A stretch of 64,000 nucleotides of DNA. It comes from Hydrogenophaga sp. (GTDB lineage: Bacteria; Pseudomonadota; Gammaproteobacteria; Burkholderiales; Burkholderiaceae_C). The translations under genes and the position numbers were made by a program. The stretch is taken from assembly GCA_018333605.1 (NCBI GenBank), contig JAGXSV010000075.1, positions 23,202 to 87,201 of the forward strand. Direction: 5' to 3'. The notes below the pieces were generated by a model. It saw only the letters and a list, made by a program, of their open reading frames with translations, made no database searches and was not told where the DNA came from. Positions 1 to 19,784 of the stretch are shown one piece after another (the stretch's first letter is position 1; each line of letters begins with the position of its first letter).

Positions 1-505
1 GCATGGCCAGGTAGAGCGATGTGGGGGTTTTGCCGCTGCGGCTCACCCCCACCAGAATCACGTCGGAGCCCTGCAGGTCGCGGTGGCTCTGGCCGTCATC
101 GTGGGCCAGCGAGAAGTTGATGGCTTCGATCCGGTCGTTGTAGGCTTGACTTTTGGAGGCGTCGGAAAAACGCCCCACCCGGTGGTTGGATTTGATGCCG
201 AGTTCCGCTTCCAGGGGTTCAACAAAGGTGCCGAACATGTCCAGCAGCATGCCCTGGCAGGTTTCTTTCACCACGCGCAACACATCCATGTTGACCACGG
301 TGGTGAACACCAGCGGCCGTTTGCCCTCCACCTCGGCCGTGTGGTTGATCTGCCGTATGGCCTGGTGAGCCTTGTCCACGCTGTCAATGAAGGGCAGGCG
401 CACCCGCCGAACCGGCGCTTCAAACTGCGCCAGGATGGCGTTGCCAAAGGTTTCGGCTGTGATGCCGGTGCCGTCAGAGATGAAAAAGACCGTTCGGTTG
501 GGCAT
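1..505 (-). CDS. ppsR: Pyruvate,water dikinase (PEP synthase) regulatory protein, partial at the left window edge
   Basis: Reverse strand reads MPNRTVFFISDGTGITAETFGNAILAQFEAPVRRVRLPFIDSVDKAHQAI...GSDVILVGVSRSGKTPTSLYLAM and runs off the edge; divergent from ppsA. An alternative in-frame ATG lies at 520. Confidence 0.9.
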   Translation of the reverse strand, partial: MPNRTVFFISDGTGITAETFGNAILAQFEAPVRRVRLPFIDSVDKAHQAIRQINHTAEVEGKRPLVFTTVVNMDVLRVVKETCQGMLLDMFGTFVEPLEAELGIKSNHRVGRFSDASKSQAYNDRIEAINFSLAHDDGQSHRDLQGSDVILVGVSRSGKTPTSLYLAM

Positions 506-768
506 GGTGGTACCGGGCATGTGCAAAAGGGAGCTCAAAAGGATTGTGAAAAATTCAAATTCAGCCGTCGTGGCTTTCACGCGCCGGCAGGCGGGTCGCC
601 GTCTCATCCGGGGCGTGCACCCTACAATCACGGGTGCTGGCTGCAGACCATTATCCTGGCTGCGGCCCCAGATTCAGCCCCGTTGCCCGGTGCCAGACCC
701 ACAACAGAATTACAGGTCTTGAGCTGGTGCGTGGAGCCCCCGGTTTTTTAACCTTGAGGAGTCTTTCC

Positions 769-3180
<2,412 letters not shown>

Positions 3181-3207
3181 GGCGCGGTTAGACCGGTAAC
3201 GGTGCAC

Positions 3208-3238
3208 AGCGGCGGGGTACAGCCCTTGCCGCTTTTTT
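3208..3238 (+). terminator. Rho-independent terminator after ppsA
   Basis: AGCGGCGGGG-tacag-CCCTTGCCGCT hairpin followed by TTTTTT. Confidence 0.7.
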
Positions 3239-3331
3239 GTTGCGCTGCAGCGTAAGGCGGCGGTCAGTGCCTGGCGCACAATCGTTCACAAGGTGCGCCC
3301 ACGGTGCGCGCCCCACAACGAGGAGACACGC

Positions 3332-3562
3332 ATGTTTGAAGGACTGGCCGCACAGCGTTTGGTGGCCCTGTTTTTCGCCGGCTGGGCGCTGCTGAACTTT
3401 CCTTTGCTCGCCCTGTGGGACCACGACGCCCGGGTCTGGGGCTTGCCCTTGTTTCCACTCGCGCTGTTTGTCCTCTGGGCGCTGCTGATTGCGGTGCTGG
3501 CCTGGGTGGTGGAGGGCGGTGCTTCTTCGCACCCATCTGTGCCCCACGAGCGCTTGGACTGA
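3332..3562 (+). CDS. Small two-TM hypothetical membrane protein
   Basis: MFEGLAAQRLVALFFAGWALLNFPLLALWDHDARVWGLPLFPLALFVLWALLIAVLAWVVEG...; AGGAG RBS; immediately precedes the SLC5-histidine kinase gene. Confidence 0.7.
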   Translation: MFEGLAAQRLVALFFAGWALLNFPLLALWDHDARVWGLPLFPLALFVLWALLIAVLAWVVEGGASSHPSVPHERLD

Positions 3563-3577
3563 CCCGATCGCACCACC

Positions 3578-6349
3578 ATGTTGTCCGCCCCGCTCGTCAT
3601 TGGCGTCTCGTTTGCCTACCTGTTGCTGCTGTTTGCGGTGGCCTATTTTGGCGACTGGCGGGCGGCTCAAGGGCGCTCGATCATTGCCAGCCCGTGGGTG
3701 TATGCCTTGTCGATGGCGGTGTATTGCACCGCCTGGACCTACTTTGGCAGCGTGGGCCGCGCGGCCAATTCCGGGGTGTGGTTCCTGCCGATCTACCTGG
3801 GCCCCATGCTGGCCATGATTTTGGCCTGGATGGTGGTGCGCAAGATGATCCGCATCGCCAAGACCTACCGCATCACCTCCATTGCCGACTTCATTGCCAG
3901 CCGTTACGGCAAGAGCCCGACCCTGGCCGGTCTGGTGACGCTGATCACGGTGGTGGGCATCGTGCCCTACATTGCATTGCAGCTCAAAGCCATTGCCAGC
4001 GGCTACGCGGTGCTCACCTCACCCCTGGGCCAGCCCGCGGTGCAAAGCGCCGACTGGTGGAGCGACAGCACGCTGTATGTGGCGCTGGCACTGGCGGGCT
4101 TCACAATCGTCTTTGGTGCCCGCCACCTGGACAGCACCGAGCGCCACGAGGGCATGGTGGCGGCGATTGCGTTCGAGTCGGTGGTGAAGCTGGTGGCGTT
4201 CATGGCCGTGGGCCTGTTTGTGAGCTTTGGCCTGTTTGCCAGCCCAGCCGCTTTGTTTGAGCAGGCCCACGCCGTGGAAGCGCTGCGCAACCTGCTGCAG
4301 TTTGGGCAGGGCCAACCTTTTCCCTACGCACAGTGGCTGGGCCTGACGCTGCTGGCCATGCTGTCGGTCATTTTTCTGCCGCGGCAATTTCAGGTGATGG
4401 TGGTGGAGAACGTGGACGAACAGCACCTGCGGCGCGCGGTGTGGGCGTTTCCGCTGTACCTGCTGCTGATCAACTTGTTTGTGCTGCCCATCGCCATTGG
4501 CGGCCTGCTGCATTTCGGCCCCGGTGTCATGGACCCGGAAACCTTCATCTTGTCGTTGCCGTTGTCACAGGGACAAAACGCTTTGGCCCTGTTTGCCTTT
4601 GTGGGTGGGTTGTCGGCGGCCACCGGCATGGTGATCGTGGAAGCCATCGCGGTGTCCACCATGGTGTGCAACGATCTGGTGATGCCCATTTTGCTGCGCA
4701 TGCGGCGCTTCGGCGCGCGCGCCAGTGGTGATTTGACGGGCCTGCTGCTGGCTATTCGCCGCTTGGCCATTTTGGGCATTTTGTTGTTGGGCTACCTGTA
4801 CTTTCACCTGGCTGGCGAGGCCTACGCACTGGTCAGCATCGGGCTGATCAGCTTTGCCGCCGTGGCGCAGTTTGCGCCAGCCATGCTGGGGGGCATGTAC
4901 TGGAAGGGTGGCACACGCCACGGCGCGCTCACCGGTCTGTTGCTCGGCTTTGCGTTTTGGGTCTATACCTTGATGCTGCCCTCGCTGGCCAAGTCGGGCT
5001 GGCTGGCAGCCGACTTTCTGGAGCATGGGCCCTGGGGTCTGGTCTGGCTCAAGCCCGAAGCCTTTCTGGGTTTGGTGGGCTTGGACAATCTGAGCCATTC
5101 GCTGTTCTGGAGCTTGCTGGCCAACGTGGGCGGCTACGTCGGCGTGTCGCTGTGGCGCGCGCCTTCGGCCCGCGAAACCAGCCAGGCGTTGTTGTTTGTG
5201 GACGTGTTCAATCGCAAGGCCGGTGCGCGGCCGGTGTTCTGGCAGGGCCGCGCCAAGGTGTCGGCGCTGCTGCCGCTGGCGGGCCGGTTTCTGGGGGCCG
5301 AGCAGGCACAACGCCTGTTTGCCGACTACGCGCGCCGTGTGGGGGTGGCGGGCATTGACGCCATACCCGCAGATGCCCGCCTGGTGCAGTTTGTTGAAAC
5401 CGAACTGACGGGTGCGATTGGCAGCGCGTCCGCACGGGTCATGGTGGCTTCGGTGGTGGAGGAAGAGCCTCTGGATCTGGACGATGTGATGCGCATCCTG
5501 GACGAAGCTTCCCAGTTGCGTGCCTATTCCCATGCGCTGGAAGAAAAGTCGCAGTCGCTGGAGCGGGCCACCGCCGAATTGCGTGAGGCCAATGAAAAAC
5601 TGAAGAGTCTGGACCGCATGAAGGACGATTTCATGTCCTCGGTCACCCACGAATTGCGCACACCCTTGACTTCGATCAGGGCGCTCTCGGAGTTGATGCG
5701 CGACGATAGCGACATGGATCTGGCGCAGCGCCAGCAGTTTCTGGGCATCATCGTGGTGGAAGCTGAACGGCTGAGCCGGTTGGTGAGCCAGGTGCTGGAC
5801 ATGGCCAAAATTGAAGCCGGGCACGCCGAGTGGCACAACACCGAGGTGGACATGCGCGAGTTGCTGGAACAAGCCGCTGCCACCATGGGGGAAACCTGCC
5901 GGGAGCGCGGCGTGGCGTTGCAACTGGAGTTGCCCGCCATGGTGCGCCCGCTGTGGGCCGACGCGGACCGGATCACCCAGGTGGTGCTGAACCTGCTGTC
6001 CAACGCGGCCAAATACGCGCCGCGCGGCGCGGGGCGGGTGCAGATGCGCTTGAATGACGAGACGGATGGCATCACGGTGGAGGTTCAGGACAACGGACCG
6101 GGCCTTGCGCAGGATCAGCAGGCGATAGTGTTTGAGAAATTTCGTCAGGTGACGGGCGACGATCATTACCGCCCAGGCGGCACGGGTCTGGGCTTACCCA
6201 TCAGCCGCCAGATCGTGGAGCATTTTGGCGGGCACATGTGGCTGCGGTCGAGCGCTGGGCAGGGCGCTGTATTTGGTTTCTTCTTGCCGCGACGCAACAC
6301 CGGCACTGAAGGCCAGGTGAACGGCGCGTCTGACACACCAGCGACTTGA
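3578..6349 (+). CDS. Hybrid sensor: N-terminal sodium:solute symporter (SLC5) domain fused to a HisKA/HATPase histidine kinase (CbrA/CrbS-like)
   Basis: 923 aa; multi-TM N-terminus with SSS-like helices; H-box SSVTHELRTPLTSIRAL; HATPase boxes NLLSNAAKYAP, DNGPGL, GTGLGLPIS. Confidence 0.9.
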   Translation: MLSAPLVIGVSFAYLLLLFAVAYFGDWRAAQGRSIIASPWVYALSMAVYCTAWTYFGSVGRAANSGVWFLPIYLGPMLAMILAWMVVRKMIRIAKTYRITSIADFIASRYGKSPTLAGLVTLITVVGIVPYIALQLKAIASGYAVLTSPLGQPAVQSADWWSDSTLYVALALAGFTIVFGARHLDSTERHEGMVAAIAFESVVKLVAFMAVGLFVSFGLFASPAALFEQAHAVEALRNLLQFGQGQPFPYAQWLGLTLLAMLSVIFLPRQFQVMVVENVDEQHLRRAVWAFPLYLLLINLFVLPIAIGGLLHFGPGVMDPETFILSLPLSQGQNALALFAFVGGLSAATGMVIVEAIAVSTMVCNDLVMPILLRMRRFGARASGDLTGLLLAIRRLAILGILLLGYLYFHLAGEAYALVSIGLISFAAVAQFAPAMLGGMYWKGGTRHGALTGLLLGFAFWVYTLMLPSLAKSGWLAADFLEHGPWGLVWLKPEAFLGLVGLDNLSHSLFWSLLANVGGYVGVSLWRAPSARETSQALLFVDVFNRKAGARPVFWQGRAKVSALLPLAGRFLGAEQAQRLFADYARRVGVAGIDAIPADARLVQFVETELTGAIGSASARVMVASVVEEEPLDLDDVMRILDEASQLRAYSHALEEKSQSLERATAELREANEKLKSLDRMKDDFMSSVTHELRTPLTSIRALSELMRDDSDMDLAQRQQFLGIIVVEAERLSRLVSQVLDMAKIEAGHAEWHNTEVDMRELLEQAAATMGETCRERGVALQLELPAMVRPLWADADRITQVVLNLLSNAAKYAPRGAGRVQMRLNDETDGITVEVQDNGPGLAQDQQAIVFEKFRQVTGDDHYRPGGTGLGLPISRQIVEHFGGHMWLRSSAGQGAVFGFFLPRRNTGTEGQVNGASDTPAT

Positions 6350-6396
6350 GTCCCGGGGGCCTGGGCGCAGCGCACAACAAACAGAGGAGCACAGGC

Positions 6397-6771
6397 ATGA
6401 GCCAGAAAATACTGATTGCAGACGACGAGCCCAACATCCTGATCTCCCTGGAGTTCTTGATGAAGCGTGAAGGCTACGATGTGGTGGTGGCGCGCGATGG
6501 GCAGGAGGCGGTGGACGCGGTTCTGCGTGAGCGCCCGGCACTCGTGTTGTTGGACGTGATGATGCCCGTCAAGACCGGGTTTGATGTGTGCCACGAGGTG
6601 CGCGCCAACGAGGCCGTGCGCGACACACTCATTGTCATGCTCACCGCCAAGGGGCGGGACACCGATGTGGCCAAGGGTTTGGCCCTGGGCGCCAACGCCT
6701 ACATGACCAAGCCGTTTTCAACCAAAGAACTGGTGCAAAAAGTGCGTGAGTTGCTGGGGTCGCCTGCATGA
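6397..6771 (+). CDS. Stand-alone receiver-domain response regulator (no output domain)
   Basis: MSQKILIADDEPNILISLEFLMKREGYDVVVARDGQEAV...LVLLDVMMP...MLTAKGR...GANAYMTKPFS; 124 aa. ATG 6397 with GAGGAG RBS. Confidence 0.9.
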   Translation: MSQKILIADDEPNILISLEFLMKREGYDVVVARDGQEAVDAVLRERPALVLLDVMMPVKTGFDVCHEVRANEAVRDTLIVMLTAKGRDTDVAKGLALGANAYMTKPFSTKELVQKVRELLGSPA

Positions 6772-8969
6772 GCGCCCAGCAAAAAACCGACCGTCGGCTG
6801 TGGTGGTTGCTGGGTGTGGCGGCCGTGCTGTCGGTGGCCTGGCTGCTGGCCACCCTGGGCCTGGTGGGCTCTACACTGGAGCCGACGGAGCGCGCGACGG
6901 TTTGGGGCCTGCTCGGCGACCGGCTGGCTCTGATTTCCCTGACCTGGGGCGCGGGCATGGCGGCCATTGCCTGGGGACTCAAGCGCTGGTTTGACCATTG
7001 GGTGACGCCTTCAGTGCAGCTGGCGGAAGAAGCCCAGGTGCTGCTGAAAACCGATGTGGTGCGCGAACTGCGGCCCAAAGGCAATGTGGAAACCCGCGTG
7101 CTGGCCGATCTGTTCAACCAACTGGTGGGCCAGCGCGAGGCGCTGCGGCGCGAGATGGACAGCAAGGTACAAGAGGCTGCGCAGGGGATTGAGCAGGAAA
7201 AAAGCCGTTTGGCGGCGCTGATGTCCGAACTGACGCAAAGCGTGGTGGTGTGTAACCTGGATGGCCGCGTGCTGCTGTACAACAACCGCGCCCGCATGCA
7301 GTTTCGTGCGCTCTCGCAGGCGCCCGGCGTGGCTGGTGGTGCCGAGCTGATCGGTCTGGGCCGGTCAATCTACAGCGTGTTTGACCGCAAGCTGGTGGCC
7401 CATGCGTTGGAAAACATTCAGCAGCGCATGCTGCGCGGGGCAGGGCAGCCGTCGGCGCAGTTCGTGACCACCACCGCAGCCGGGCAGCTGCTGAGGGTGC
7501 AAATGGCGCCTGTGCGCTCACCACAAGCCCAAGGCGCCGAGGCCGCAGCCGATCGCATGGAGCTGACCGGCTTCGTGCTGATGCTTGACAACATCACCAG
7601 CGACTTTGAAGCCGAGTCGGCCAAAGACCAGGTGCTGCACAGCCTGACCGAGGGCAGCCGCTCGGCGCTGGCCAACATGCAGGCCGCGATTGACATGCTG
7701 GACTACCCCGACCTGGAGCCCGCCATGCGCGAGCGTTTCCTGGGCGTGATCCGCGACGAAACGCGGTCACTGAGCCAACGCATTGGTGCGCTGGAAGCGG
7801 GTTCGGCCGACAGCCTGAAGACGCGCTGGCCGCTGGAAGACATGCTGGGTGCCGACCTGGTGAGCGCAGCTCTGCGCCGCATTGAGACCGTGACCAGTCT
7901 GCCCGCCTCGTCCATCGACGTGGATGGCTCGGTCTGGCTCAAGGTGGAGAGCTTTTCGCTGTTGCAGGCGCTGGTGTACCTGTCGGGGCGCCTGGCCGAC
8001 GAGTTCGAGGTGCGCTTTGTTCAGTTGCGACTGGGCAACGCCACGGGAAGCCCTGGCAAGGCCCAGCTGGACCTGATCTGGTCGGGTCAGGTCATGAGTA
8101 CCGAGACGGTGATGAGCTGGGAAATGGACGCCATGAAGGTGGGCAGTGAAACCACACGCTTGACGGTGCGCGATGTGGTGGAGCGCCACGGCGGCGCTTT
8201 CTGGTTTGAGCGCGAGCGTTCGCGACACCAGGCGTTTTTCCGTTTCCTGCTGCCGCTGGCCAACCCGCAGGAGCAGCTGGATTCGGCCGCGTTCGTCAAG
8301 AACGAAAGCCGTCCCGAGTACTACGACTTCGACCTTTTCAAGACCACCGAGCAGACGCGCACCCTGGACGACCGCCGACTCAGCGACCTGGCCTACACGG
8401 TGTTCGACACCGAGACCACCGGCCTGAACCCGTCGCAGGGCGACGAGATCATCCAGATTGGAGCGGCGCGCGTGGTCAACAACAAGCTGCTGCGCCAGGA
8501 ATGCTTTGAGCAACTGGTTGACCCGCGGCGCACGATTCCAGCGGCGTCCATACCCATTCACGGCATCCAGCCCGAGATGGTGCTGGGCCAGCCCACCATT
8601 GACCAGGTGTTGCCCGCGTTTCATGCCTTTGCGCAGGACACCGTGCTGGTGGCCCACAACGCCGCATTTGACATGCGCTTTTTGCAGCTGAAGGAGAAGC
8701 AGAGCGGGGTGGTGTTTGACCACCCGGTGCTCGACACGCTGCTGCTGTCGGCCCTGGTGCATCCCAACCAGGACTCGCACCGTCTGGAGGCCATCGCCGA
8801 GCGCTTCAATGTCACCATCATCGGCCGCCACACCGCCATGGGGGACGCCATGGTGACCGCCGAGGTGTTCCTGAAGCTCATTCCGCTGCTGGCCGAAAAA
8901 GGTATTCACACCTTGGGGCAGGCGCGTGAAGCAGCGCAGCAAACCTACTACGCCCGCTTGAAGTATTGA
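6768..8969 (+). CDS. Membrane-anchored HAMP/PAS/degenerate histidine-kinase protein fused to a C-terminal DEDDh 3'-5' exonuclease (DnaQ-like)
   Basis: 733 aa; two N-terminal TM segments; PAS-like region VVVCNLDGRVLLYNNRA; C-terminus has TVFDTETTGLNPSQGDEIIQIGAARV, VAHNAAFDMRFL and GRHTAMGDAMVT. ATGA overlap with the response regulator. Confidence 0.85.
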   Translation: MSAQQKTDRRLWWLLGVAAVLSVAWLLATLGLVGSTLEPTERATVWGLLGDRLALISLTWGAGMAAIAWGLKRWFDHWVTPSVQLAEEAQVLLKTDVVRELRPKGNVETRVLADLFNQLVGQREALRREMDSKVQEAAQGIEQEKSRLAALMSELTQSVVVCNLDGRVLLYNNRARMQFRALSQAPGVAGGAELIGLGRSIYSVFDRKLVAHALENIQQRMLRGAGQPSAQFVTTTAAGQLLRVQMAPVRSPQAQGAEAAADRMELTGFVLMLDNITSDFEAESAKDQVLHSLTEGSRSALANMQAAIDMLDYPDLEPAMRERFLGVIRDETRSLSQRIGALEAGSADSLKTRWPLEDMLGADLVSAALRRIETVTSLPASSIDVDGSVWLKVESFSLLQALVYLSGRLADEFEVRFVQLRLGNATGSPGKAQLDLIWSGQVMSTETVMSWEMDAMKVGSETTRLTVRDVVERHGGAFWFERERSRHQAFFRFLLPLANPQEQLDSAAFVKNESRPEYYDFDLFKTTEQTRTLDDRRLSDLAYTVFDTETTGLNPSQGDEIIQIGAARVVNNKLLRQECFEQLVDPRRTIPAASIPIHGIQPEMVLGQPTIDQVLPAFHAFAQDTVLVAHNAAFDMRFLQLKEKQSGVVFDHPVLDTLLLSALVHPNQDSHRLEAIAERFNVTIIGRHTAMGDAMVTAEVFLKLIPLLAEKGIHTLGQAREAAQQTYYARLKY

Positions 8970-8970
8970 T

Positions 8971-9009
8971 CTCCCCCGCGCCGGCTTGTGCGACCGGTGC
9001 GGGGGGAGC
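8971..9009. terminator. Strong hairpin between convergent genes (no clear T-run)
   Basis: CTCCCCCGCgCCGG-cttgtgcga-CCGGtGCGGGGGGAG. Confidence 0.45.
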
Positions 9010-10875
9010 TCAATGCCTGTAGCGTTGGGCCAGCACGCTTTGAAGCGACTGCACCACGGTGAAGGCATCCTTGAGCTGGCTGCGTTCGAAGTTGGACACG
9101 TCGGCCGGATTGAGGAAGCTGTCGGGTGACTCGGCGCGGCTAATCTGTCGGGCCTGGTGCTGGATGCGGGTGTAGGCGATAAATTCCAGGGCGTCGCGCA
9201 AGTCGCGCGCGCTTTGCTCGCTGATGGCGCCACCAGCCGCGGCGCTCGTCAGGCGGTCGTGGGTGTTCACCGCAGCGTCACCACCCGCCAGCGCATAGAT
9301 TCGGGCCAGGTCGACGATGGGCACCACGCCGGTGTGTTTGAGGTCGATGGTGCCCTTGTGCTCGCCGCTGCGAATGGTGGAGATGCCTTTGAACATGCCC
9401 AGCGGGGGCTGGTGTGTCAGTGCGTTGCCAACCATGTGCGCCAGGAACAGGGTGTTGCCCTGCGTGCGTTTGAGCACGTCGCCGCGCAGGTTGTCCAGCA
9501 GCTCGGATTTGCCGTGAATCGCGCGCAGGTCGAAAAACACGCAGGTCAGCATCAAGGCCTTCGGGTTGGGCTGGCTTGTCCAGCGAGCGAAATAGTCAGC
9601 CCAGCGCTTTTGGGGTTGGCGCCATGTGTCGGTCATGGCCATCATCTCGCCGGGGCAGTAAATGTAGCCGCAGGCGTCCAGGCCATCGCAGACAAACTGG
9701 GACAAGGCCTTGAAATAGGGGCCGTGAACGGCCTCGTCGTAGCGGTCGTCCAGCACCATGCAATTGTCCTGGTCTGACTTGGCCGTCTGTTCGTTGCGCG
9801 CCTGAGAGCCTGCCGCTACCCAGACGTAGTCGATCGGCGCCGGGCCCAGCTGCGCTTCACCCAGTTGCAGCAGCCGCGTGGTGATCGCATCGGTGATGGC
9901 CGTGATGATGTGGCCGGTGCTGTAGGCCGACGCTTCGGCCGCCGCCAGGCTCTGTTGCAGCCGCTTGATCTTGGTGCTGGCGCGCTGCAGGCCCTCAACC
10001 GTGCTTTGCTTGTAAATGTCCCCAGCCAGGTAAACGGCGGAGGTGCTGTGCTGTTCGGTCAGGTCGGTGGCGGTGATCATGCCCACGATACGCTGCCCAT
10101 CCAGCACCGGCACATGGTGGATGTTGTGTCGCGCCATCAGCAGCAGTGCGTCAAATGCCGGGTTTTGTACGTCGATGCTTAGGGGGGCCAGCGTGGCAAT
10201 GTCCATGATGGGGCGGGTGCTGTCCATGCCAGCGGCGATCACACGGTTGCGCAGGTCGCGGTCGGTGACCACGCCAAACAGGTGCTCCTGCTCCACGATC
10301 AAGACCGAAGACACCCTTTGCTCGCTCATGAGCTTTGCCGCGTCGCGGATGCTGGTGTGCGGCGGCAAGGTGATCGGGGCGCGCTTGATCAGGGCGCGCA
10401 CCGGCGTGGTCATGAGGTTGAGGGCGGGGTCTGTGCCGCCCGGCGCACCGCGTGGGCTGCTTTGCGTTGAAGTCGCGCCAGTGCTGCCACGGGGCAACAA
10501 CAGGCTCAGCGCAGGCAACTCGGTTTGCAGGGCATCAACCAGGGCATGGTCCATGCTCACCAGCGTGCAGTCGGTCCGGGCCTGGCACTCTTCGACACCG
10601 GCCACCCCATCAGCCTGCAAGCCAAACAGTTCGCCCGGGTACAAGGTGATCACGGGTTGCTGCTGCCCGTCCAGCAGGTGGACGCTACCCGTTACCAACC
10701 AGTGCAGCTGTTGCTGCAGTGCGGCTGGGGTACACGCTTGTGCACCAGCCGCCACCGGCTTTGCCTTGAGCGTGTCAGCCAACTTCTTTTGGGTGTCGTC
10801 GGACAGCAGGCCAAAGATACGGTGCATACGCAGGAGGTCGGCCAAAGGCGGTGTGTCGGAAGCGGTTTGTGTCAT
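9010..10875 (-). CDS. cNMP-binding-like / tandem CBS / DUF294 nucleotidyltransferase protein
   Basis: MTQTASDTPPLADLLRMHRIFGLLSDDTQKKL...; CBS region RVSSVLIVEQEHLFGVVTDRDLRNRV and HHVPVLDGQRIVGMITATDL; NTase motif GSQARNEQTAKSDQDN. Confidence 0.85.
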   Translation of the reverse strand: MTQTASDTPPLADLLRMHRIFGLLSDDTQKKLADTLKAKPVAAGAQACTPAALQQQLHWLVTGSVHLLDGQQQPVITLYPGELFGLQADGVAGVEECQARTDCTLVSMDHALVDALQTELPALSLLLPRGSTGATSTQSSPRGAPGGTDPALNLMTTPVRALIKRAPITLPPHTSIRDAAKLMSEQRVSSVLIVEQEHLFGVVTDRDLRNRVIAAGMDSTRPIMDIATLAPLSIDVQNPAFDALLLMARHNIHHVPVLDGQRIVGMITATDLTEQHSTSAVYLAGDIYKQSTVEGLQRASTKIKRLQQSLAAAEASAYSTGHIITAITDAITTRLLQLGEAQLGPAPIDYVWVAAGSQARNEQTAKSDQDNCMVLDDRYDEAVHGPYFKALSQFVCDGLDACGYIYCPGEMMAMTDTWRQPQKRWADYFARWTSQPNPKALMLTCVFFDLRAIHGKSELLDNLRGDVLKRTQGNTLFLAHMVGNALTHQPPLGMFKGISTIRSGEHKGTIDLKHTGVVPIVDLARIYALAGGDAAVNTHDRLTSAAAGGAISEQSARDLRDALEFIAYTRIQHQARQISRAESPDSFLNPADVSNFERSQLKDAFTVVQSLQSVLAQRYRH

Positions 10876-11016
10876 GGGTCGGGGTCCAGGTGGATTCAGC
10901 AAAACATGCTACACCGCACTGCAGCGGTCGCTGGTGGGTAAACCCTCACAGGGTTTGACCTGCGTCAGAGGGTTGGCGGGTGCGTCTGTAAGAACGCGGT
11001 AAGGTCCAGATTCAGA

Positions 11017-11340
11017 ATGGCGACACCGTTACCGCAGGCTTACATGCTCTTAATGATTTCTGCGCTCAAACTGATCACCGAAGTGGCCTTGTTGGCGCTT
11101 GTTGGTCAGTGGATTTTGGGCCTGCTGGCTGGCCAGCGCAAACAACACAATGTTTTTTACCAGGTGCTCGAGATCATCGGGCGGCCATTTGTTCAATTCA
11201 CACGCTGGGTTACCCCGCGTGTCGTCCTGGACCGCCACCTCCCGCTGGTGGCCTTTTTGATTTTGGGCTTTGTCTGGCTGGCCGTTACCGTGGCCAAAAT
11301 TTCCCACTGCCTGAAAGTGGGGGTTTCTCTGTGTCAGTGA
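11017..11340 (+). CDS. Hypothetical membrane protein (YggT-like hydrophobicity, not assigned)
   Basis: 107 aa with two to three hydrophobic segments: MLLMISALKLITEVALLALVGQWILGLL...PLVAFLILGFVWLAVTVAK. Confidence 0.55.
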   Translation: MATPLPQAYMLLMISALKLITEVALLALVGQWILGLLAGQRKQHNVFYQVLEIIGRPFVQFTRWVTPRVVLDRHLPLVAFLILGFVWLAVTVAKISHCLKVGVSLCQ

Positions 11341-11921
11341 ACCGTCCCACCAAGAGGTGTTTTGTCCACTGGCAGGTGCGTGGCTTGCTGCTGCTGGGGC
11401 GCCAGCGCCAGGCGCTTGAACGCATCACGGAGGCGCTGCAAGCCCACCCCAGCGACGCCCGGGCGCTGGCCACCCGAGCCCATGTGTTGGCCGAACTGGG
11501 TGAAAAGCCTGCCGCCCTTCAAGCGCTCGCCGATTTGGTGGCGCTTGAGCCTGGGCAAGCGGCCAGTTGGTTCAACTATGGTTTTTTGAGCGAAGAGCTG
11601 GGCCTGCTGGAGCAAGCTGAAAACGCTTTTCAGCGCGCTGTCGCCATCGATCCCCGGCTGGATCGGGCTTGGTATGGTCTCGCGCTCAGCCTGATCCGCC
11701 AGCGTCGTTTTGACGAAGCCATCTCCGCGCTGAAGAAAAACACCGAACTGCAACCCATGAGCCCCTACGGCTGGTACCAGTTGGCGCGCGTGCATGTGCA
11801 GCGGCAAGAGCCCGATGAAGCAACGAAAATCATTCGCCACCTGCGCCGCTTTGATCCCAAGGTGGCCGCCCAGCTCGAAAGGGAAACGGGCCTGGGCGGG
11901 CGCCGTCTGAAGTCCGCGTGA
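11331..11921 (+). CDS. Tetratricopeptide-repeat protein
   Basis: TPR-like repeats ALERITEALQAHPSDARALATRAHVLAELGEKPAALQALADLVALEPGQAASWFNYGFLSEELGLLEQAENAFQRAVAIDPRLDRAWYGLALSL. Likely GTG start at 11331 or 11337; the ORF-track start is too early. Confidence 0.75.
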   Translation: MSVNRPTKRCFVHWQVRGLLLLGRQRQALERITEALQAHPSDARALATRAHVLAELGEKPAALQALADLVALEPGQAASWFNYGFLSEELGLLEQAENAFQRAVAIDPRLDRAWYGLALSLIRQRRFDEAISALKKNTELQPMSPYGWYQLARVHVQRQEPDEATKIIRHLRRFDPKVAAQLERETGLGGRRLKSA

Positions 11922-12002
11922 CGCCCACGGCGTTTCCATTGAACACGGGTTCCCGGCACAAGCCTAGCCCATGAAGTGCCCGCAAGGGCGAAGTTGACCG
12001 AG

Positions 12003-12272
12003 ATGAATACCGTGGACCTGACCGACAACCACCGCCGCTACTGGCGCAAGAACCTCCGCATCACGGGTGTGTTGCTGGCCATCTGGTTTGTGGTCACCTT
12101 CGTTGTGAGCTACTTTGCCCGCGAACTGAGTTTCAGTTTTTTTGGTTGGCCATTCAGCTTCTGGATGGGTGCCCAGGGCGCGTTGGTGGTGTACTGCCTG
12201 ATCATTGGTTTTTACGCTTGGTACATGAACCGCCTCGATATTGAGCACGGTGTTGACGAAATCGAGGACTGA
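12003..12272 (+). CDS. DUF4212 protein (small partner of SSS symporter)
   Basis: MNTVDLTDNHRRYWRKNLRITGVLLAIWFVVTFVVSYFARELSFSFFGWPFSFWMGAQGALVVYCLIIGFYAWYMNRLDIEHGVDE; directly upstream of the symporter. Confidence 0.9.
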   Translation: MNTVDLTDNHRRYWRKNLRITGVLLAIWFVVTFVVSYFARELSFSFFGWPFSFWMGAQGALVVYCLIIGFYAWYMNRLDIEHGVDEIED

Positions 12273-12276
12273 AGGC

Positions 12277-14394
12277 GTGGCCGGCAGCTCAGATTCGGGC
12301 TCCGCCAGCGGCAAAGGCGCGGCCAACCGGGCCTTCCGCCAGCAGCTCAACAAGGTCTACACGTGGTACACGGGCGGTTTCTTCGTCTTTGTGATCGCCC
12401 TGGCCATCTTGGAGCAGCTCGGGCTTTCGCGAGAATGGATCGGCTTCATCTTTTTGCTGGCCACCATCGGCTTGTACGCGGGCATCGGCATCATGAGCCG
12501 CACCACCGACGCGACCGAATACTACGTGGCCGGGCGGCGTGTACCAGCGGTCTACAACGGCATGGCCACCGGTGCCGACTGGATGTCGGCCGCCTCGTTC
12601 ATTGGCATGGCCGGTACGCTGTACCTCACGGGATACAGCGGCTTGGCTTTCATCATGGGCTGGACGGGGGGATACTGTCTGGTGGCGCTGTTGCTGGCGC
12701 CTTATCTACGCAAGTTTGGGCAGTTCACCATTCCCGACTTTCTGGGCGAGCGCTACGGTGGCAACATGCCGCGTTTCATCGGCATTTTCGCGGCCATTCT
12801 GTGCTCGTTTACTTATGTGGTGGCGCAGATTTATGGCGTCGGCCTGATCACGTCCCGCCTCACCGGCGTGGCCTTTGAGCTTGGCGTTTTTCTGGGCCTG
12901 GGCGGTATTTTGGTGTGCTCTTTCCTGGGCGGGATGCGAGCCGTCACCTGGACGCAGGTAGCCCAATACATCGTCCTGATCGTGGCCTACCTGATTCCCG
13001 TGGTGTGGCTGTCGGTCAAGCAGGCGAATTTCCCCTTGCCGCAGGTCATCTATGGTTATCAGCTGGAAAAAGTCACAGCCAAAGAAAAGCTGCTGACCAA
13101 CGACCCCAAAGAGCTGGAGGTTCGCGACATCTTCAGGGAGCGTGCCGCAGAGCTGACGGAAAAACTGAAAGACCCAGGCGCAGCACTGAAGGCGGATAAG
13201 GCTGCGGCTGAAGCCAAGCTGGCTGAGCTGAGGGCGGCCAACGTACCGTCCAGGACGGTATCCACGGCCGAACGAGCGGTGTCATCCTTGCCCAGGGACG
13301 AAGCATCAGCCAAAGCCGCCTGGACCCGAGACAAGGCTCTGGCCGAAACCAAATCCATGCCCCTGAATGGCATGCCGCCCCACGCGGCGCAGTTTGCAGG
13401 TGATCCGAAAGGCAACGCCCAGGAGAAAGCGGCCTACGACAACTCGCGCCGCAACTTCCTTGCTTTGATCTTTTGCCTGATGATCGGCACGGCAGCCCTG
13501 CCGCACATCTTGATGCGCTACTACACCGTGCCCAGCGTGAAGGAGGCCCGGCAGTCCGTCACCTGGTCGTTGTTTTTCATTTTTTTGCTTTATTTCACCG
13601 CGCCCGCCCTGGCTGTGCTGGTGAAGTATGAGGTGTTTCATGTGCTGATCGGCACGCCCATCGATCAGTTGCCCGCCTGGGTGGCGTCCTGGAACAAGGT
13701 CGATCCGAGCCTGATGTCGATCACAGACGTCAACAAGGACGGCATTTTGCAGCTCAATGAGATGAGCATCGGCGGCGACATCATCGTTCTGGCCACGGCC
13801 GAAATTGGTGGTCTCCCTTACGTCATATCGGGCCTGGTGGCTGCCGGTGGCCTGGCAGCGGCCTTGTCAACCGCCGACGGCTTGTTGCTGACGATCGCCA
13901 ACGCGTTATCGCACGATTTGTATTACAAAATGATCAACCCCAACGCTTCCACAGCCCGCCGCGTGACCATCTCCAAGGTGTTGTTGCTGATGGTGGCGCT
14001 GGTGGCGGCTTATGTGGCGGCGCAGAAGCCTGCCGATATTTTGTTTCTGGTCTCGGCCGCTTTTTCGTTTGCTGCGGCCGCATTTTTCCCCGCGTTGGTG
14101 CTGGGTATTTTCTGGAAGCGGGCCACCGGCATCGCTGCTTCGTTAGGCATGATCGCGGGCTTGGGTGTCACTTTCTATTACATGGTGACCACGCAGCCCT
14201 GGTTGCGAGACGTGTTTGGCGTGACCAAGCCCATAGAGCTGTGGTGGGGCATCCTGCCCATTTCGGCCGGGGTTTTTGGGGTTCCGCTGGGCTTTGCGGT
14301 GATCATTTTCATCAGCTGGGTGACGCCAGCGCCCAGCCGCAAGGTGCAGCAACTGGTGGAGCATGTGCGCTACCCCAGCCTGCGAGAGCTTTGA
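12277..14394 (+). CDS. Sodium:solute symporter, VC_2705-type (acetate-permease-like)
   Basis: SSS motifs TDATEYYVAGRRVPAVYNGMATGADWMSAASFIGMAG and GLVAAGGLAAALSTADGLLLTIANALSHDLY. Probable GTG start at 12277 just after the DUF4212 stop. Confidence 0.9.
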   Translation: MAGSSDSGSASGKGAANRAFRQQLNKVYTWYTGGFFVFVIALAILEQLGLSREWIGFIFLLATIGLYAGIGIMSRTTDATEYYVAGRRVPAVYNGMATGADWMSAASFIGMAGTLYLTGYSGLAFIMGWTGGYCLVALLLAPYLRKFGQFTIPDFLGERYGGNMPRFIGIFAAILCSFTYVVAQIYGVGLITSRLTGVAFELGVFLGLGGILVCSFLGGMRAVTWTQVAQYIVLIVAYLIPVVWLSVKQANFPLPQVIYGYQLEKVTAKEKLLTNDPKELEVRDIFRERAAELTEKLKDPGAALKADKAAAEAKLAELRAANVPSRTVSTAERAVSSLPRDEASAKAAWTRDKALAETKSMPLNGMPPHAAQFAGDPKGNAQEKAAYDNSRRNFLALIFCLMIGTAALPHILMRYYTVPSVKEARQSVTWSLFFIFLLYFTAPALAVLVKYEVFHVLIGTPIDQLPAWVASWNKVDPSLMSITDVNKDGILQLNEMSIGGDIIVLATAEIGGLPYVISGLVAAGGLAAALSTADGLLLTIANALSHDLYYKMINPNASTARRVTISKVLLLMVALVAAYVAAQKPADILFLVSAAFSFAAAAFFPALVLGIFWKRATGIAASLGMIAGLGVTFYYMVTTQPWLRDVFGVTKPIELWWGILPISAGVFGVPLGFAVIIFISWVTPAPSRKVQQLVEHVRYPSLREL

Positions 14395-14468
14395 TCGTGA
14401 GACCTGCAGACGCCTGATCTGTCGCGCCCCAACGCCAAGGTGCATTCCCGGCGTCGATCGGGCGAGTT

Positions 14469-14498
14469 TTGCCAGAGCCCAGATTTTCTTGTTAGAAT
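14469..14498 (+). promoter_or_regulatory. Predicted sigma70 promoter of the rpsF operon
   Basis: TTGCCA (14469-14474), 18-nt spacer, TAGAAT (14493-14498). Confidence 0.6.
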
Positions 14499-14512
14499 CG
14501 CGGGCTTGCCTT

Positions 14513-14548
14513 GCCGCACCCCAAACAGACGCTGGGGGCGGCTTTTTT
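14513..14548 (+). promoter_or_regulatory. Terminator-like hairpin in the rpsF 5' leader (attenuator candidate)
   Basis: GCCGC(A)CCCC-aaacagacgct-GGGGGCGGC-TTTTTT between the promoter and the rpsF ATG. Confidence 0.55.
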
Positions 14549-14565
14549 ATCCACAAGGAGAGTCT

Positions 14566-14940
14566 ATGCGTCATTACGAAATCGTTTTGCTGATCCACCC
14601 GGATCAAAGCGAACAAGTTCCGGCCATGCTGGAGCGCTACAAGGGCATGATCACGGCTGGCAACGGCAAGATCCACCGCGTTGAAGACTGGGGTCGCCGT
14701 CAAATGGCCTACCAGATCAACAAGCTGTCCAAGGCCCACTACCTGTGCGTCAACATCGAAGCCGATCAGGCCGTGATGGCTGAACTGGAGCATGCCTTCA
14801 AGTTCAACGACGCTGTGCTGCGACACCTCACCGTGCTCAAGAAGAAAGCCGATACCGGCCCATCTTCCATGATGAAGTCGGTCGAGCGCGAAGAAGCCCG
14901 CAAGTCCCAGCAACAACCGCAGGAACAGGCCGCGGCGTAA
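14566..14940 (+). CDS. rpsF: 30S ribosomal protein S6
   Basis: [29 protein letters not shown]...[52 protein letters not shown]. Confidence 0.97.
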
Positions 14941-14965
14941 CAGCGCCGCGTGACGTCGTCAGCGG

Positions 14966-15253
14966 GTGAACCAACTTCAACTGTCGGCCGTGGTGGTGCA
15001 GGTGCAGAGCCTGCGGTACACGCCAGCTGGCATACCGGCTCTCAACATCGTGCTCGAACACGATTCTGAGACCGTTGAAATGGACACCCCCCGGCTCGTG
15101 AAATTGCAACTGAGGGCTGTGGCTTTTGGTGCGCAGGCAGAGGTATTGTCCCGCCAGGGGCTCGACTCGGCTTGTGAATTTCGCGGCTTCCTGACGAACG
15201 CCCGCAACGGCAAAGGCGTTGTGTTCCATATCCAAGATTTCAGCAAGACATAG
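14966..15253 (+). CDS. priB: Primosomal replication protein N
   Basis: 95 aa OB-fold SSB-like protein between rpsF and rpsR; GTG start. Confidence 0.88.
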
Positions 15254-15264
15254 GAAGGCCCATC

Positions 15265-15546
15265 ATGGCTGCACCAAAACGTTTCAACAAAGACAAGCGC
15301 CCCAAGCGCAACACCCAATCGCTGCTGTTCAAGCGCAAGCGCTTCTGCCGCTTCACGGTGGCCAACGTCGAAGAAGTTGACTACAAGGACGTCGATGTCC
15401 TGCGCGACTTCATCGCCGAAAACGGCAAGATCATTCCCGCGCGCCTGACCGGCACGCGCGCCTTCTACCAGCGTCAGGTCAACACCGCCATCAAGCGTGC
15501 GCGCTTCCTGGCCATGTTGCCTTACAGCGACCAGCACCGCGTCTGA
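15265..15546 (+). CDS. rpsR: 30S ribosomal protein S18
   Basis: [64 protein letters not shown]. Confidence 0.97.
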
Positions 15547-15559
15547 AAGAGAGCCTGAC

Positions 15560-16012
15560 ATGCAAATCATTCTGCTCGACAAAGTTACCAATCTCGGCGC
15601 CCTGGGCGATGTGGTCAAGGTCAAAGACGGTTACGCACGTAACTTCCTGATCCCCACCGGCCGCGCACGCCGCGCTACCTCCAACGCCATCGCCGAATTC
15701 GAAGCGCGCCGCGCCGAACTCGAAAAAGTGGCCGCCGCCAAGCACGCAGAGGCCGCCGCCTTGGGCGAAAAGCTGTCGGCCGTGACGGTCAAGCTCTCGC
15801 AAAAAGCGGGTGTGGACGGCCGCCTGTTTGGTTCTGTCACCAACCACGACGTGTCTGAAGAGCTGAACAAGCTGGGCTTCGCTGTGAACAAGTCGCAAGT
15901 GCGCATGCCCAATGGCCCGCTGAAGCTGGTGGGCGACTACACGGTGAGTGTGCACCTGCACACCGATGTGACGGTCGATGTCAACGTCTCGGTGCTCGGC
16001 GAAACCGCCTGA
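15560..16012 (+). CDS. rplI: 50S ribosomal protein L9
   Basis: [40 protein letters not shown]...; ATG 15560. Confidence 0.97.
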
Positions 16013-16050
16013 TCAACCGGTGCTGGCGCGCAAGCGCCGCACCCAAAAAG

Positions 16051-16080
16051 CCGCCGCGCCTTCGGGTCGGCGGTTTTTTT
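16051..16080 (+). terminator. Rho-independent terminator after rplI
   Basis: CCGCCG-cgccttcgggt-CGGCGG-TTTTTTT. Confidence 0.85.
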
Positions 16081-16261
16081 CATGGCGCTGAACCTCGCGG
16101 CAGGTTGTCCTGTGGGCTGCAAGTCTTTGACACCCGCTTCGCACAAGTTATCCCGCGAAGTCAACGGGCAGTCCACCGAATACCCACCGGTTGTGCACAG
16201 ACTTGTCCCATGACTTCTGATCGCTCAGGCCGTACCATTGCCAGTCACTCAAAGAAAGCCC

Positions 16262-17689
16262 ATGGCTGCTGTTTTTTCCGATTCTTTTTCTTCTTTTGAT
16301 GCCGGCCTGGATGCGGCGGGCATGGGTATTGATCGCCAGGTGGCCCAGCTGCGCGTGCCTCCGCACTCGATTGAGTCCGAGTCCAGCGTGCTGGGCGGCC
16401 TGTTGCTCGACAACGGCGCCTGGGACCGGGTGGCCGACCTGCTCAACGAGTCTGACTTTTACCGTTACGAACACCGCCTGACGTATTCGGCCATCGCCAC
16501 ACTGGTGAATGCCAGCAAGCCCGCCGATGTTGTCACGGTCTATGAGCACCTGCAAAACCTGGGCAAGGCCGACGAGGCTGGCGGCCTTGCCTACCTGAAC
16601 TCACTGGCGCAGTATGTGCCGAGCGCGGCCAACATCCGTCGATACGCCGAGATCGTGCGCGAGCGCGCCATCCTGCGCAAGCTGATCACCGCCAGCGACG
16701 AAATTGCCACCTCGGCTTTCAACACGCAAGGCCGACCGGTGGACAAGATACTGGACGAGGCCGAGCAAAAAATCTTCCATATTGGGGAAGAGGGCTCACG
16801 CATGAAGGAGGGTTTTCAAGGCATGGACACGCTCGTGGTCGAGTTGCTCGACCGTGTGCAGGAAATGGCCGACAACCCCAACGACGTCACGGGTGTGCCA
16901 ACGGGTTTTGTCGATCTCGACCGCATGACCTCGGGCCTTCAGGCGGGTGACTTGATCGTGTTGGCGGCGCGACCCTCCATGGGAAAAACGGCGTTTGCCA
17001 TCAATATTGCCGAGCATGTTGCGCTGAATGAAGGCCTGCCTGTCGCGGTCTTCTCCATGGAGATGGGCGCGTCCCAGTTGGCTGTGCGTATCGTAGGCTC
17101 CATTGGGCGCATCAACCAGAGCCACCTGCGCAGCGGAAAACTCACCGACGACGAGTGGCCACGCCTGACAGAAGCGATTGAAAAACTGCGCAACGTGTCG
17201 CTGCATATTGACGAGACGCCTGGTCTGACCCCCAGTGTGCTGCGGGCCAATGCCCGGCGCTTGTCGCGCCAGTGCGGCAAGCTCGGGCTGATCGTGGTGG
17301 ACTATTTGCAGCTCATGAGTGGCAGCGGTTCTGATGGCGACAATAGGGCGTCCGAGCTGGGCGAGATTTCGCGCGGTTTGAAAATGCTCGCCAAAGAGTT
17401 GCAGTGCCCAGTGATTGCGCTTTCGCAGCTCAACCGATCGGTGGAGACACGCACCGACAAGCGCCCCATGATGAGCGACTTGCGTGAATCGGGCGCCATC
17501 GAGCAGGACGCCGACATCATCATGTTCATCTACCGCGACGAGTACTACACCAAGGACGCTTGCAAGGAGCCGGGCGTGGCCGAGATCATCATCGGTAAGC
17601 AGCGAAACGGGCCCACCGGTACTGTGAAGCTGGCCTTCCTGAACATGCTCACACGCTTTGAAAGTCTGGCTGGCGGCGGCGATTACTGA
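16262..17689 (+). CDS. dnaB: Replicative DNA helicase
   Basis: VPPHSIESESSVLGGLLLDN-type N-terminus; Walker A ARPSMGKTAFA; LIVVDYLQLM. Confidence 0.97.
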   Translation: MAAVFSDSFSSFDAGLDAAGMGIDRQVAQLRVPPHSIESESSVLGGLLLDNGAWDRVADLLNESDFYRYEHRLTYSAIATLVNASKPADVVTVYEHLQNLGKADEAGGLAYLNSLAQYVPSAANIRRYAEIVRERAILRKLITASDEIATSAFNTQGRPVDKILDEAEQKIFHIGEEGSRMKEGFQGMDTLVVELLDRVQEMADNPNDVTGVPTGFVDLDRMTSGLQAGDLIVLAARPSMGKTAFAINIAEHVALNEGLPVAVFSMEMGASQLAVRIVGSIGRINQSHLRSGKLTDDEWPRLTEAIEKLRNVSLHIDETPGLTPSVLRANARRLSRQCGKLGLIVVDYLQLMSGSGSDGDNRASELGEISRGLKMLAKELQCPVIALSQLNRSVETRTDKRPMMSDLRESGAIEQDADIIMFIYRDEYYTKDACKEPGVAEIIIGKQRNGPTGTVKLAFLNMLTRFESLAGGGDY

Positions 17690-17710
17690 TCTGCGTTGCG
17701 CTCAGCAAAA

Positions 17711-17733
17711 AACCCGGCTTTCGCCGGGTTCTT
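17711..17733 (+). terminator. Rho-independent terminator after dnaB
   Basis: AACCCGGC-tttc-GCCGGGTT-CTT. Confidence 0.7.
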
Positions 17734-17764
17734 CAGACATCTTGGCTTGTCTGCACCCGCGGCG

Positions 17765-19591: not shown

Positions 19592-19620
19592 GGCGGATGT
19601 CGTTGTTCAGCTGGAGGTCA

Positions 19621-19655
19621 GAAAACAAAAAGCCGCCGGGGCGACCGGGCGGCTT
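19621..19655 (-). terminator. Rho-independent terminator after bcp (minus strand)
   Basis: On the minus strand AGCCGCC-cggtcgcccc-GGCGGCT-TTTTGTTTT. Confidence 0.7.
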
Positions 19656-19784
19656 TCGAGCTGCTGAGGGTTTTGGGGAAACTGGGAGCGGAATGGCTTC
19701 CTGATGTCATGCAAACATTATGCATGACGGGTGTGACCGTCTTTTCCTCAGGGGATCTGGGCGCTCAACACACTTTCAGACCCT

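What the first reader, a model, noticed from the sequence alone, without database searches (positions are those of the whole stretch)
3332..14394. Candidate signalling/transport system: SLC5-histidine kinase, orphan receiver, pseudokinase-exonuclease, cNMP/CBS/DUF294 NTase and DUF4212-SSS symporter
Seen: a small membrane protein, an SLC5-fused histidine kinase, a receiver-only regulator and a pseudo-HK/DEDDh-exonuclease are co-directional and nearly overlapping; a convergent cNMP/CBS/DUF294 protein and a DUF4212-symporter pair follow. Established: CbrA/CrbS-type SLC5 kinases usually pair with regulators carrying an output domain and control carbon/acetate use; VC_2705-type symporters occur with DUF4212. 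Inference: the receiver has no DNA-binding domain, so its output may be protein-protein, possibly onto the adjacent membrane pseudokinase. The exonuclease and the GlnD-like NTase suggest a nucleotide- or RNA-based signalling step controlling the symporter. I know of no described mechanism linking these parts.
Basis: partly seen in the sequence, partly recalled or inferred. Interest (0 to 1): 0.8.

Follow-up and report, generated by a model that had tools for sequence, protein, structure and literature searches.

The report
Kinase-relic exonuclease wired to transporter-sensor
A bacterial nutrient sensor, half transporter and half kinase, appears to pass its signal through a small relay protein to a membrane protein built from a dead kinase and a nucleic-acid-cutting enzyme, next to carboxylate-uptake genes; comparing about 200 relatives shows that the dead-kinase docking part survives only where the relay protein exists.

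Summary
In this Hydrogenophaga-type genome, 3332-8969 encodes a small membrane protein, an active SLC5-STAC histidine kinase, a receiver-only regulator and a TM-PAS-pseudokinase-DEDDh exonuclease (EXO). A convergent CBS/DUF294 nucleotidyltransferase and a DUF4212/VC_2705-type symporter follow. The block is syntenic across Pseudomonadota, not only in close relatives.

Part of the link is already published. Pseudomonas exonuclease PP_0353, CBS/DUF294 protein PP_0354 and actP are targets of the SLC5-kinase system MxtR/ErdR, and PP_0353 is needed for growth on pyruvate.

The new part is the wiring. EXO carries a degenerate DHp (ex-His is Glu295) and a dead ATPase domain. Over 199 EXO loci, the pseudo-DHp is intact in 165 of 168 with a cognate receiver. 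It is eroded or deleted in 30 of 31 without one, while PAS and exonuclease persist. On a tree, 8.3 of 9 independent contrasts agree and none oppose (p about 0.008).

Exonuclease and DUF294 are fused in four other genomes; DUF294 folds like the adenylyltransferase GlnE. Substrate, direction of control and any symporter effect are unknown. New variant of a known kind.

The parts
3332..3562 (+). small protein with two predicted TM segments, in the position of CbrX upstream of CbrA
   Evidence: found near EXO in 125 of 157 testable loci; conserved pattern RL.Alf...l.nfPll...G.Pl.p...W..lI..Aw and two hydrophobic stretches; CbrX comparison from PMC6591292 and PMC13022988
3578..6349 (+). SLC5-STAC histidine kinase (transceptor) with intact H691, N, G1 and G2 boxes; no PAS or receiver domain detected by Pfam
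   Evidence: Pfam HisKA and HATPase_c; family profile aligns with CbrA 10ed_A residues 7-590, SLC5 plus STAC, 5.9e-95; invariant catalytic residues
6397..6771 (+). receiver-only response regulator, phospho-acceptor Asp in LLLDVMMP
   Evidence: Response_reg over residues 5-117 of 124; DDE, LLD and KPF motifs conserved in about 140 orthologues
6768..8969 (+). EXO: membrane protein TM-PAS-pseudoDHp-pseudoCA-DEDDh exonuclease (733 aa)
   Evidence: catalytic D547, E549, D635, H688, D693 unchanged in all 165 rows aligned
7227..7592 (+). EXO PAS domain (residues 154-275)
   Evidence: AF2 secondary structure; strongly conserved RLAALM.ELtqSVVVCNLDGR; weak Pfam PAS_4
7596..7805 (+). EXO pseudo-DHp helical hairpin (residues 277-346); codon 7650-7652 is Glu295 at the phospho-His position
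   Evidence: kept only with a cognate receiver
7836..8258 (+). EXO degenerate CA (ATPase) domain (residues 357-497), N and G1 boxes lost
8385..8966 (+). EXO DEDDh (DnaQ/PolC-like) 3'-5' exonuclease domain (residues 540-733)
   Evidence: RNase_T 8.1e-36; PolC exonuclease 2p1j 2.1e-44; Foldseek DnaQ epsilon
9010..10902 (-). CBS-pair plus DUF294 nucleotidyltransferase with HEPN-like C-terminal domain and a weak N-terminal cNMP domain
   Evidence: Pfam; GSxxRxEQ....DQDN motif conserved; AF2 fold matches GlnE 1v4a/3k7d and DrrA
11976..12272 (+). DUF4212 small subunit of a sodium/solute symporter
   Evidence: PF13937 and TIGR03647 above cut-off
12241..14394 (+). VC_2705-family sodium/solute symporter (the true start may lie inside this ORF)
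   Evidence: TIGR03648, 806 bits against a cut-off of 321, from residue 69

Best explanation
This is a two-component module for carboxylate use with a non-transcriptional output. The SLC5-STAC kinase (3578-6349) senses an organic acid, probably pyruvate, acetate or a related monocarboxylate, and phosphorylates the receiver-only regulator. The receiver docks on the pseudo-DHp hairpin of EXO, which cannot accept phosphate because its His is Glu295 and its ATPase domain is dead. Docking is relayed to the membrane-tethered 3'-5' exonuclease domain and changes its activity, in the way DivK~P is read by the pseudokinase DivL. The exonuclease works with the DUF294 nucleotidyltransferase on the same nucleotide-bearing target, one adding and the other trimming or removing nucleotides, and this adjusts uptake or use of monocarboxylates through the DUF4212/SSS symporter. 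Shown by sequence: gene content, active kinase residues, dead pseudokinase, intact exonuclease and nucleotidyltransferase motifs, synteny, co-inheritance of receiver and pseudo-DHp, exonuclease-DUF294 fusions. Inferred: phosphotransfer, docking, direction of control, the shared target, the sensed ligand.
For: Kinase and receiver are gained and lost together: of 157 testable loci, 135 have both, 19 neither, 2 receiver only, 1 kinase only. Receiver and pseudo-DHp are co-inherited: 165 of 168 against 1 of 31 intact; 8.3 of 9 independent supported contrasts agree, 0 oppose, p about 0.008; PAS and CA controls show no significant effect. EXO copies lacking an adjacent receiver but with one elsewhere in the genome keep a normal pseudo-DHp. 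In one alphaproteobacterial family receiver-less EXO is TM-PAS-exonuclease of about 470 aa or has a partial DHp, while two receiver-bearing members keep it whole and a third keeps a partial one. A locus with a divergent receiver that has lost its phospho-Asp and no SLC5 kinase in the genome still keeps receiver and pseudo-DHp. Exonuclease and CBS-DUF294 are one polypeptide in four genomes. PP_0353, PP_0354 and actP are targets of an SLC5-kinase system, and PP_0353 and ActP-I are needed for normal growth on pyruvate (PMC9927547). ppsA, a pyruvate-using gene, lies just upstream in Hydrogenophaga relatives. Fold match to DivL and the DivL/DivK precedent (PMC4211667).
Against: No biochemical data. 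The receiver could have further or different targets. EXO persists in some lineages without kinase and receiver, so its basic role does not need them. The residual cut-off was chosen after seeing the data; a coverage-only version gives 5 to 0, p about 0.06. Rows L164, L257 and L279 have divergent receivers counted as present, and L159 was set by hand; recoding the three divergent ones gives the same trend. Deleting PP_0354 gave no phenotype (PMC9927547), and the PP_0353 phenotype was seen on pyruvate, not acetate. DUF294 or a symporter is near EXO in 68 of 80 loci with full flanks, so that link is looser than kinase-receiver-EXO.
Confidence: 0.6

Rival explanations
1. The pseudokinase is a scaffold or dimerisation part, and the receiver is a phosphate sink or belongs to another partner. 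EXO and receiver are neighbours only because they share a regulon.
For: Receiver-only proteins often act as sinks or chemotaxis-type relays (own knowledge). SLC5 kinases in an alphaproteobacterial family have a different receiver-only neighbour without EXO. EXO is stable without the receiver in some lineages.
Against: Does not explain why the DHp alone erodes or is deleted when the receiver is missing, while PAS and exonuclease stay, nor why EXO copies with the receiver in trans keep it.
Confidence: 0.2
2. EXO and DUF294 act on RNA: the nucleotidyltransferase tails and the exonuclease trims or degrades transcripts of carboxylate genes, so the module is a membrane-bound post-transcriptional regulator under two-component control.
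For: The P. putida authors suggest degradation of mRNA by PP_0353 (PMC9927547). DEDDh exonucleases such as ERI-type enzymes cut RNA and are among the fold matches. Exonuclease and DUF294 are fused.
Against: The closest matches are DNA-proofreading DnaQ and PolC domains, and the DUF294 fold is nearest to protein adenylyltransferases. No RNA family was found in window 1-20000. Compatible with the best explanation; it differs only in the substrate.
Confidence: 0.35
3. The DUF294 protein adenylylates (AMPylates) a protein such as the symporter, a carboxylate enzyme or the receiver, in the manner of GlnE, and the exonuclease removes the nucleotide.
For: Foldseek matches to GlnE halves 1v4a and 3k7d and to the AMPylase DrrA across 339-408 columns; intact active-site motif; CBS pair suggests adenylate sensing; fusion to the exonuclease.
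Against: No target known. De-AMPylation by a DEDDh nuclease is not an established reaction (own knowledge). Foldseek TM about 0.4 of the query.
Confidence: 0.3
4. Ordinary reading: a CrbS/MxtR-type acetate/pyruvate locus in which the pseudokinase is evolutionary debris and the exonuclease is a housekeeping DnaQ relative.
For: The regulon is known in Pseudomonas (PMC9927547, PMC5715377).
Against: The degenerate DHp is under constraint specific to receiver presence, E295 and R298 are near-invariant in receiver-bearing loci, and an architecture conserved across the phylum is not debris.
Confidence: 0.1

Closest known systems
CrbS/CrbR (MxtR/ErdR) SLC5-STAC two-component system of Pseudomonas and Vibrio
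   Same: SLC5-STAC histidine kinase; associated genes include a symporter, a CBS/DUF294 protein and an RNase_T exonuclease (PMC9927547, PMC5715377)
   Different: Here the regulator is a bare receiver without DNA-binding domain, the kinase has no receiver domain of its own, and the exonuclease is fused to TM, PAS and pseudokinase domains
CbrX-CbrA/CbrB of Pseudomonas
   Same: Small 2-TM protein upstream of an SLC5-STAC kinase; the family profile aligns across the solved SLC5-STAC structure 10ed
   Different: CbrB is a transcription activator; no exonuclease neighbour; the CbrA of the paper also has a PAS domain
DivL/DivK of Caulobacter
   Same: PAS plus kinase-dead histidine-kinase core reading a receiver-only regulator; DivL is among the fold matches (PMC4211667)
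   Different: DivL controls the kinase CckA; here the pseudokinase carries an exonuclease, and the ex-His is Glu rather than Tyr
RpuS/RpuR-MctP of Sinorhizobium fredii
   Same: SLC5-STAC kinase controlling a pyruvate symporter (PMC9100948)
   Different: LuxR-type transcription regulator; no exonuclease or DUF294 reported in the passages read
GlnE adenylyltransferase / DUF294 family
   Same: Nucleotidyltransferase plus helical HEPN-like domain, motif G-S...D-x-D, Foldseek matches 1v4a and 3k7d
   Different: CBS pair and weak cNMP domain in place of a second transferase; target unknown

Membership tests
SLC5/STAC histidine kinases | SLC5 symporter domain joined through a STAC domain to a DHp-CA kinase core | tested here: met
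   Profile alignment to CbrA SLC5-STAC construct 10ed_A residues 7-590; STAC follows residue 517 in CbrA; HisKA and HATPase_c
SLC5/STAC histidine kinases | Catalytic His, N, G1 and G2 boxes intact | tested here: met
   H691, N805/N809, D838/G840, G868-G872 invariant in 36 orthologues
CrbS/CrbR system | LuxR-type regulator with DNA-binding output domain | tested here: not met
   Regulator is 124 aa, Response_reg only
CrbS/CrbR system | Hybrid kinase with its own receiver domain | tested here: not met
   Only HisKA and HATPase_c in the kinase, which ends at residue 923
DivL-type pseudo-histidine kinases | Histidine-kinase fold with non-phosphorylatable residue at the His position | tested here: met
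   Fold; Glu295 in 140 of the 146 rows outside the receiver-less set
DivL-type pseudo-histidine kinases | Binds a receiver-only regulator through the DHp | not testable with these tools
   Indirect support only: co-inheritance
DEDDh exonucleases | Catalytic D, E, D, H, D | tested here: met
   D547, E549, D635, H688, D693 unchanged in 165 of 165 rows
DEDDh exonucleases | 3'-5' exonuclease activity | not testable with these tools
   Needs the purified protein
GlnE/DUF294 nucleotidyltransferases | Pol-beta nucleotidyltransferase motif and helical substrate domain | tested here: met
   PF03445 and PF10335 above cut-off; motif conserved; Foldseek GlnE
GlnE/DUF294 nucleotidyltransferases | Transfers AMP or another nucleotide to a protein target | not testable with these tools
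   No assay; PP_0354 deletion without phenotype on succinate or acetate (PMC9927547)
VC_2705-family sodium/solute symporters | TIGR03648 above cut-off with DUF4212 partner | tested here: met
   806.6 bits against 320.75; TIGR03647 106.6 against 26.05
Orthology of EXO with Pseudomonas PP_0353 | Same exonuclease subfamily by sequence | not tested
   PP_0353 sequence was not fetched; the link rests on domain (RNase_T), neighbours and regulon. Unnamed locus L166 shows a stand-alone 217-aa relative beside DUF294, a symporter and an SLC5-type kinase

The most novel reading that the evidence does not exclude
A two-component pathway whose output is a nuclease rather than transcription: a transporter-kinase phosphorylates a bare receiver, which switches a membrane-anchored pseudokinase-exonuclease working with a GlnE-like adenylyltransferase on one nucleotide-bearing target, a nucleotide add-and-trim switch that controls carboxylate uptake.
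Probability: 0.35. Interest if true: 0.85.

Novelty: new variant of a known kind. Interest (0 to 1): 0.66.

Why it matters
Receiver-only regulators are common and their targets are usually unknown; here comparative data single out one hairpin of one protein as the likely docking site, so the claim can be tested with two purified proteins. It would be, to my knowledge, the first case of a two-component signal read out by a nuclease through a dead kinase. It also offers an explanation for an unexplained result in P. putida (why an exonuclease is needed for growth on pyruvate) and a functional setting for the DUF294 family, for which I found no described target.

Tried and rejected
Chance co-location: rejected by synteny across the phylum. 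Pseudokinase as debris: rejected by receiver-dependent constraint. RNA element or riboswitch in the first 20 kb: none at gathering thresholds. PDB sequence search for the DUF294 part: only CBS and cNMP domains found; resolved by fold search. First version of the co-inheritance test used the SLC5 kinase as the predictor (4-5 to 0, not significant for lack of contrasts); the receiver proved the better predictor once trans copies and the wider phylum were included. Receiver-kinase-EXO residue covariation was considered and not run: too few diverged sequences and mostly conserved interfaces. Joining receiver and EXO into one chain for structure prediction was not attempted, because the tool takes unchanged proteins only. 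Literature searches for a pseudokinase-exonuclease or a receiver-only SLC5 system found nothing; only open-licence PMC papers are held, so absence is weak evidence.

Full report
What is there. The window lies in a Hydrogenophaga-type betaproteobacterial genome: the closest named loci, at 84-91% identity, are Hydrogenophaga, Comamonadaceae and Burkholderiales assemblies. Kinase (3578-6349), receiver (6397-6771) and EXO (6768-8969) are co-directional; the receiver stop and EXO start overlap (ATGA). The kinase keeps its phospho-His, N, G1 and G2 boxes in 36 orthologues. Its family profile aligns with the solved SLC5-STAC part of CbrA (10ed, residues 7-590). In CbrA the STAC domain lies after residue 517 (PMC13022988), so STAC is covered. 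The receiver has no output domain.

EXO. An AlphaFold2 model from 62 relatives (mean pLDDT 76, pTM 0.40, so domain placement is not reliable) gives two membrane helices, a PAS fold (158-275), a two-helix hairpin (277-346), a CA-like domain (357-497) and an exonuclease domain (540-730). Foldseek finds WalK, VicK, HK853 and DivL for the middle, and DnaQ/PolC for the end. Profile search agrees: histidine kinase 4i5s at 7.7e-13 and PolC exonuclease 2p1j at 2.1e-44. Reciprocal profile hits connect the EXO hairpin and CA region with the kinase core of the neighbouring SLC5 kinase. The phospho-His position is Glu295. Of 146 rows outside the receiver-less set, Glu295 is kept in 140 and Arg298 in 145, while N and G1 boxes are gone; the DEDDh residues are unchanged in all 165 rows. 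So the kinase part is dead and the nuclease is predicted active.

Synteny. I collected EXO loci by contig search and by even sampling of order, class, family and phylum. Among 157 distinct testable loci of the first set, kinase and receiver both accompany EXO in 135, both are absent in 19, the receiver alone is present in 2 and the kinase alone in 1. Order varies (small-kinase-receiver-EXO or receiver-EXO-small-kinase), which argues for selection on the grouping rather than recent inheritance. DUF294 or an SSS symporter lies within 9 kb in 68 of 80 loci with full flanks. The block is patchy within a family: 70 of 300 genomes of the window's own family.

Co-inheritance test. If the receiver acts on the pseudo-DHp, that hairpin should decay where the receiver is missing. 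Hairpin identity was measured against the expectation from exonuclease-domain identity. In genomes without the SLC5 kinase, the hairpin fell below every kinase-bearing row in 12 of 14 cases, whereas PAS and CA were mostly normal; EXO copies with kinase or receiver elsewhere in the genome were normal. Adding phylum-wide loci and the receiver itself as predictor, with receivers in trans checked by profile, gives 165 of 168 intact with receiver and 1 of 31 intact without. In 22 of the 31 the hairpin is missing or truncated, in several with the CA domain retained (L240, L250). In one alphaproteobacterial family receiver-less EXO is about 470 aa of TM-PAS-exonuclease or has a partial hairpin, while two members with the receiver (L259, L260) keep the whole hairpin and CA and a third (L279) keeps a partial one. 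On a tree built from PAS and exonuclease columns only, 9 supported independent contrasts agree in 8.3 and oppose in 0 (p about 0.008); controls are null for PAS and not significant for CA. With the exonuclease-only tree it was 5.5 of 6, p 0.031. With deletion alone as the trait it is 5 to 0, p about 0.06. Weak points: the cut-off was set after seeing the data, three rows with divergent receivers were counted as receiver-bearing and one row was set by hand; recoding the three does not change the trend. One of them, L164, has Asn in place of the phospho-Asp and no SLC5 kinase in its genome, yet keeps both receiver and hairpin, which points to physical docking rather than phosphotransfer into EXO.

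Exonuclease and DUF294. Four genomes carry exonuclease, CBS and DUF294 as one polypeptide (L179, L181; L283, L291). This is strong evidence of a shared function, independent of the kinase. The DUF294 motif GSxxRxEQ....DQDN is conserved. The AlphaFold2 model (pLDDT 85.5) matches both halves of GlnE and the AMPylase DrrA. I infer a nucleotide-transfer reaction; acceptor and nucleotide are unknown.

What is known. In P. putida the SLC5-kinase system MxtR/ErdR controls actP, pp_0354 (CBS domain) and pp_0353 (RNase_T). [quoted passage not shown] In P. fluorescens Pflu5625, with cAMP-binding, CBS and nucleotidyltransferase domains, is in the CrbS/R regulon (PMC5715377). In P. aeruginosa PA3232-PA3235 rise together on propionate (PMC9765439). 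So the set of parts is known; the fused pseudokinase and the receiver-only output are what differs. The nearest mechanistic parallel is DivL, which binds DivK~P with a kinase-dead core (PMC4211667). I did not fetch PP_0353 itself, so orthology is inferred from domain, neighbours and regulon. In Hydrogenophaga relatives and several others ppsA (PEP synthase, which uses pyruvate) lies nearby, which fits a pyruvate or monocarboxylate role.

Verdict. Observation confirmed; interpretation partly supported and, on the receiver-pseudokinase link, strengthened by new evidence. New variant of a known kind. The chain from receiver to symporter remains inference.

Noticed in passing
L179:9525-11687, L181:7918-10179, L283:6037-8148, L291:4828-6999: Single polypeptides with exonuclease, CBS and DUF294 nucleotidyltransferase domains, in four distinct genomes of the phylum.
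   Followed up: partly
L286:6660-9796, L287:4068-7553, L288 around 6498-9853: In an alphaproteobacterial family a second SLC5 kinase (41-45% identical) sits beside a different receiver-only regulator, without EXO; in L286 and L287 a gene with an ScfRs (short-chain fatty acyl-CoA regulator) domain is adjacent. Possibly another receiver-only SLC5 system.
   Followed up: partly
L164:7693-8154: Receiver next to EXO with Asn at the phospho-Asp position, in a genome without a detectable SLC5 kinase of this family.
   Followed up: partly
window:634-3180: ppsA (phosphoenolpyruvate synthase) directly upstream and co-directional; conserved there in Hydrogenophaga relatives.
   Followed up: partly
window:11017-11340 and 11346-11921: A 107-aa membrane protein with only sub-threshold YGGT similarity and a TPR protein lie between DUF294 and DUF4212 and are kept there in near relatives.
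   Followed up: no
G048 (same genus, complete genome): A complete genome of the same genus lacks both EXO and the SLC5 kinase, so the block is accessory even within the genus.
   Followed up: no
G483, G209, G326: Genomes with two EXO genes, one beside kinase and receiver and one beside an SSS symporter; both keep the pseudo-DHp.
   Followed up: partly
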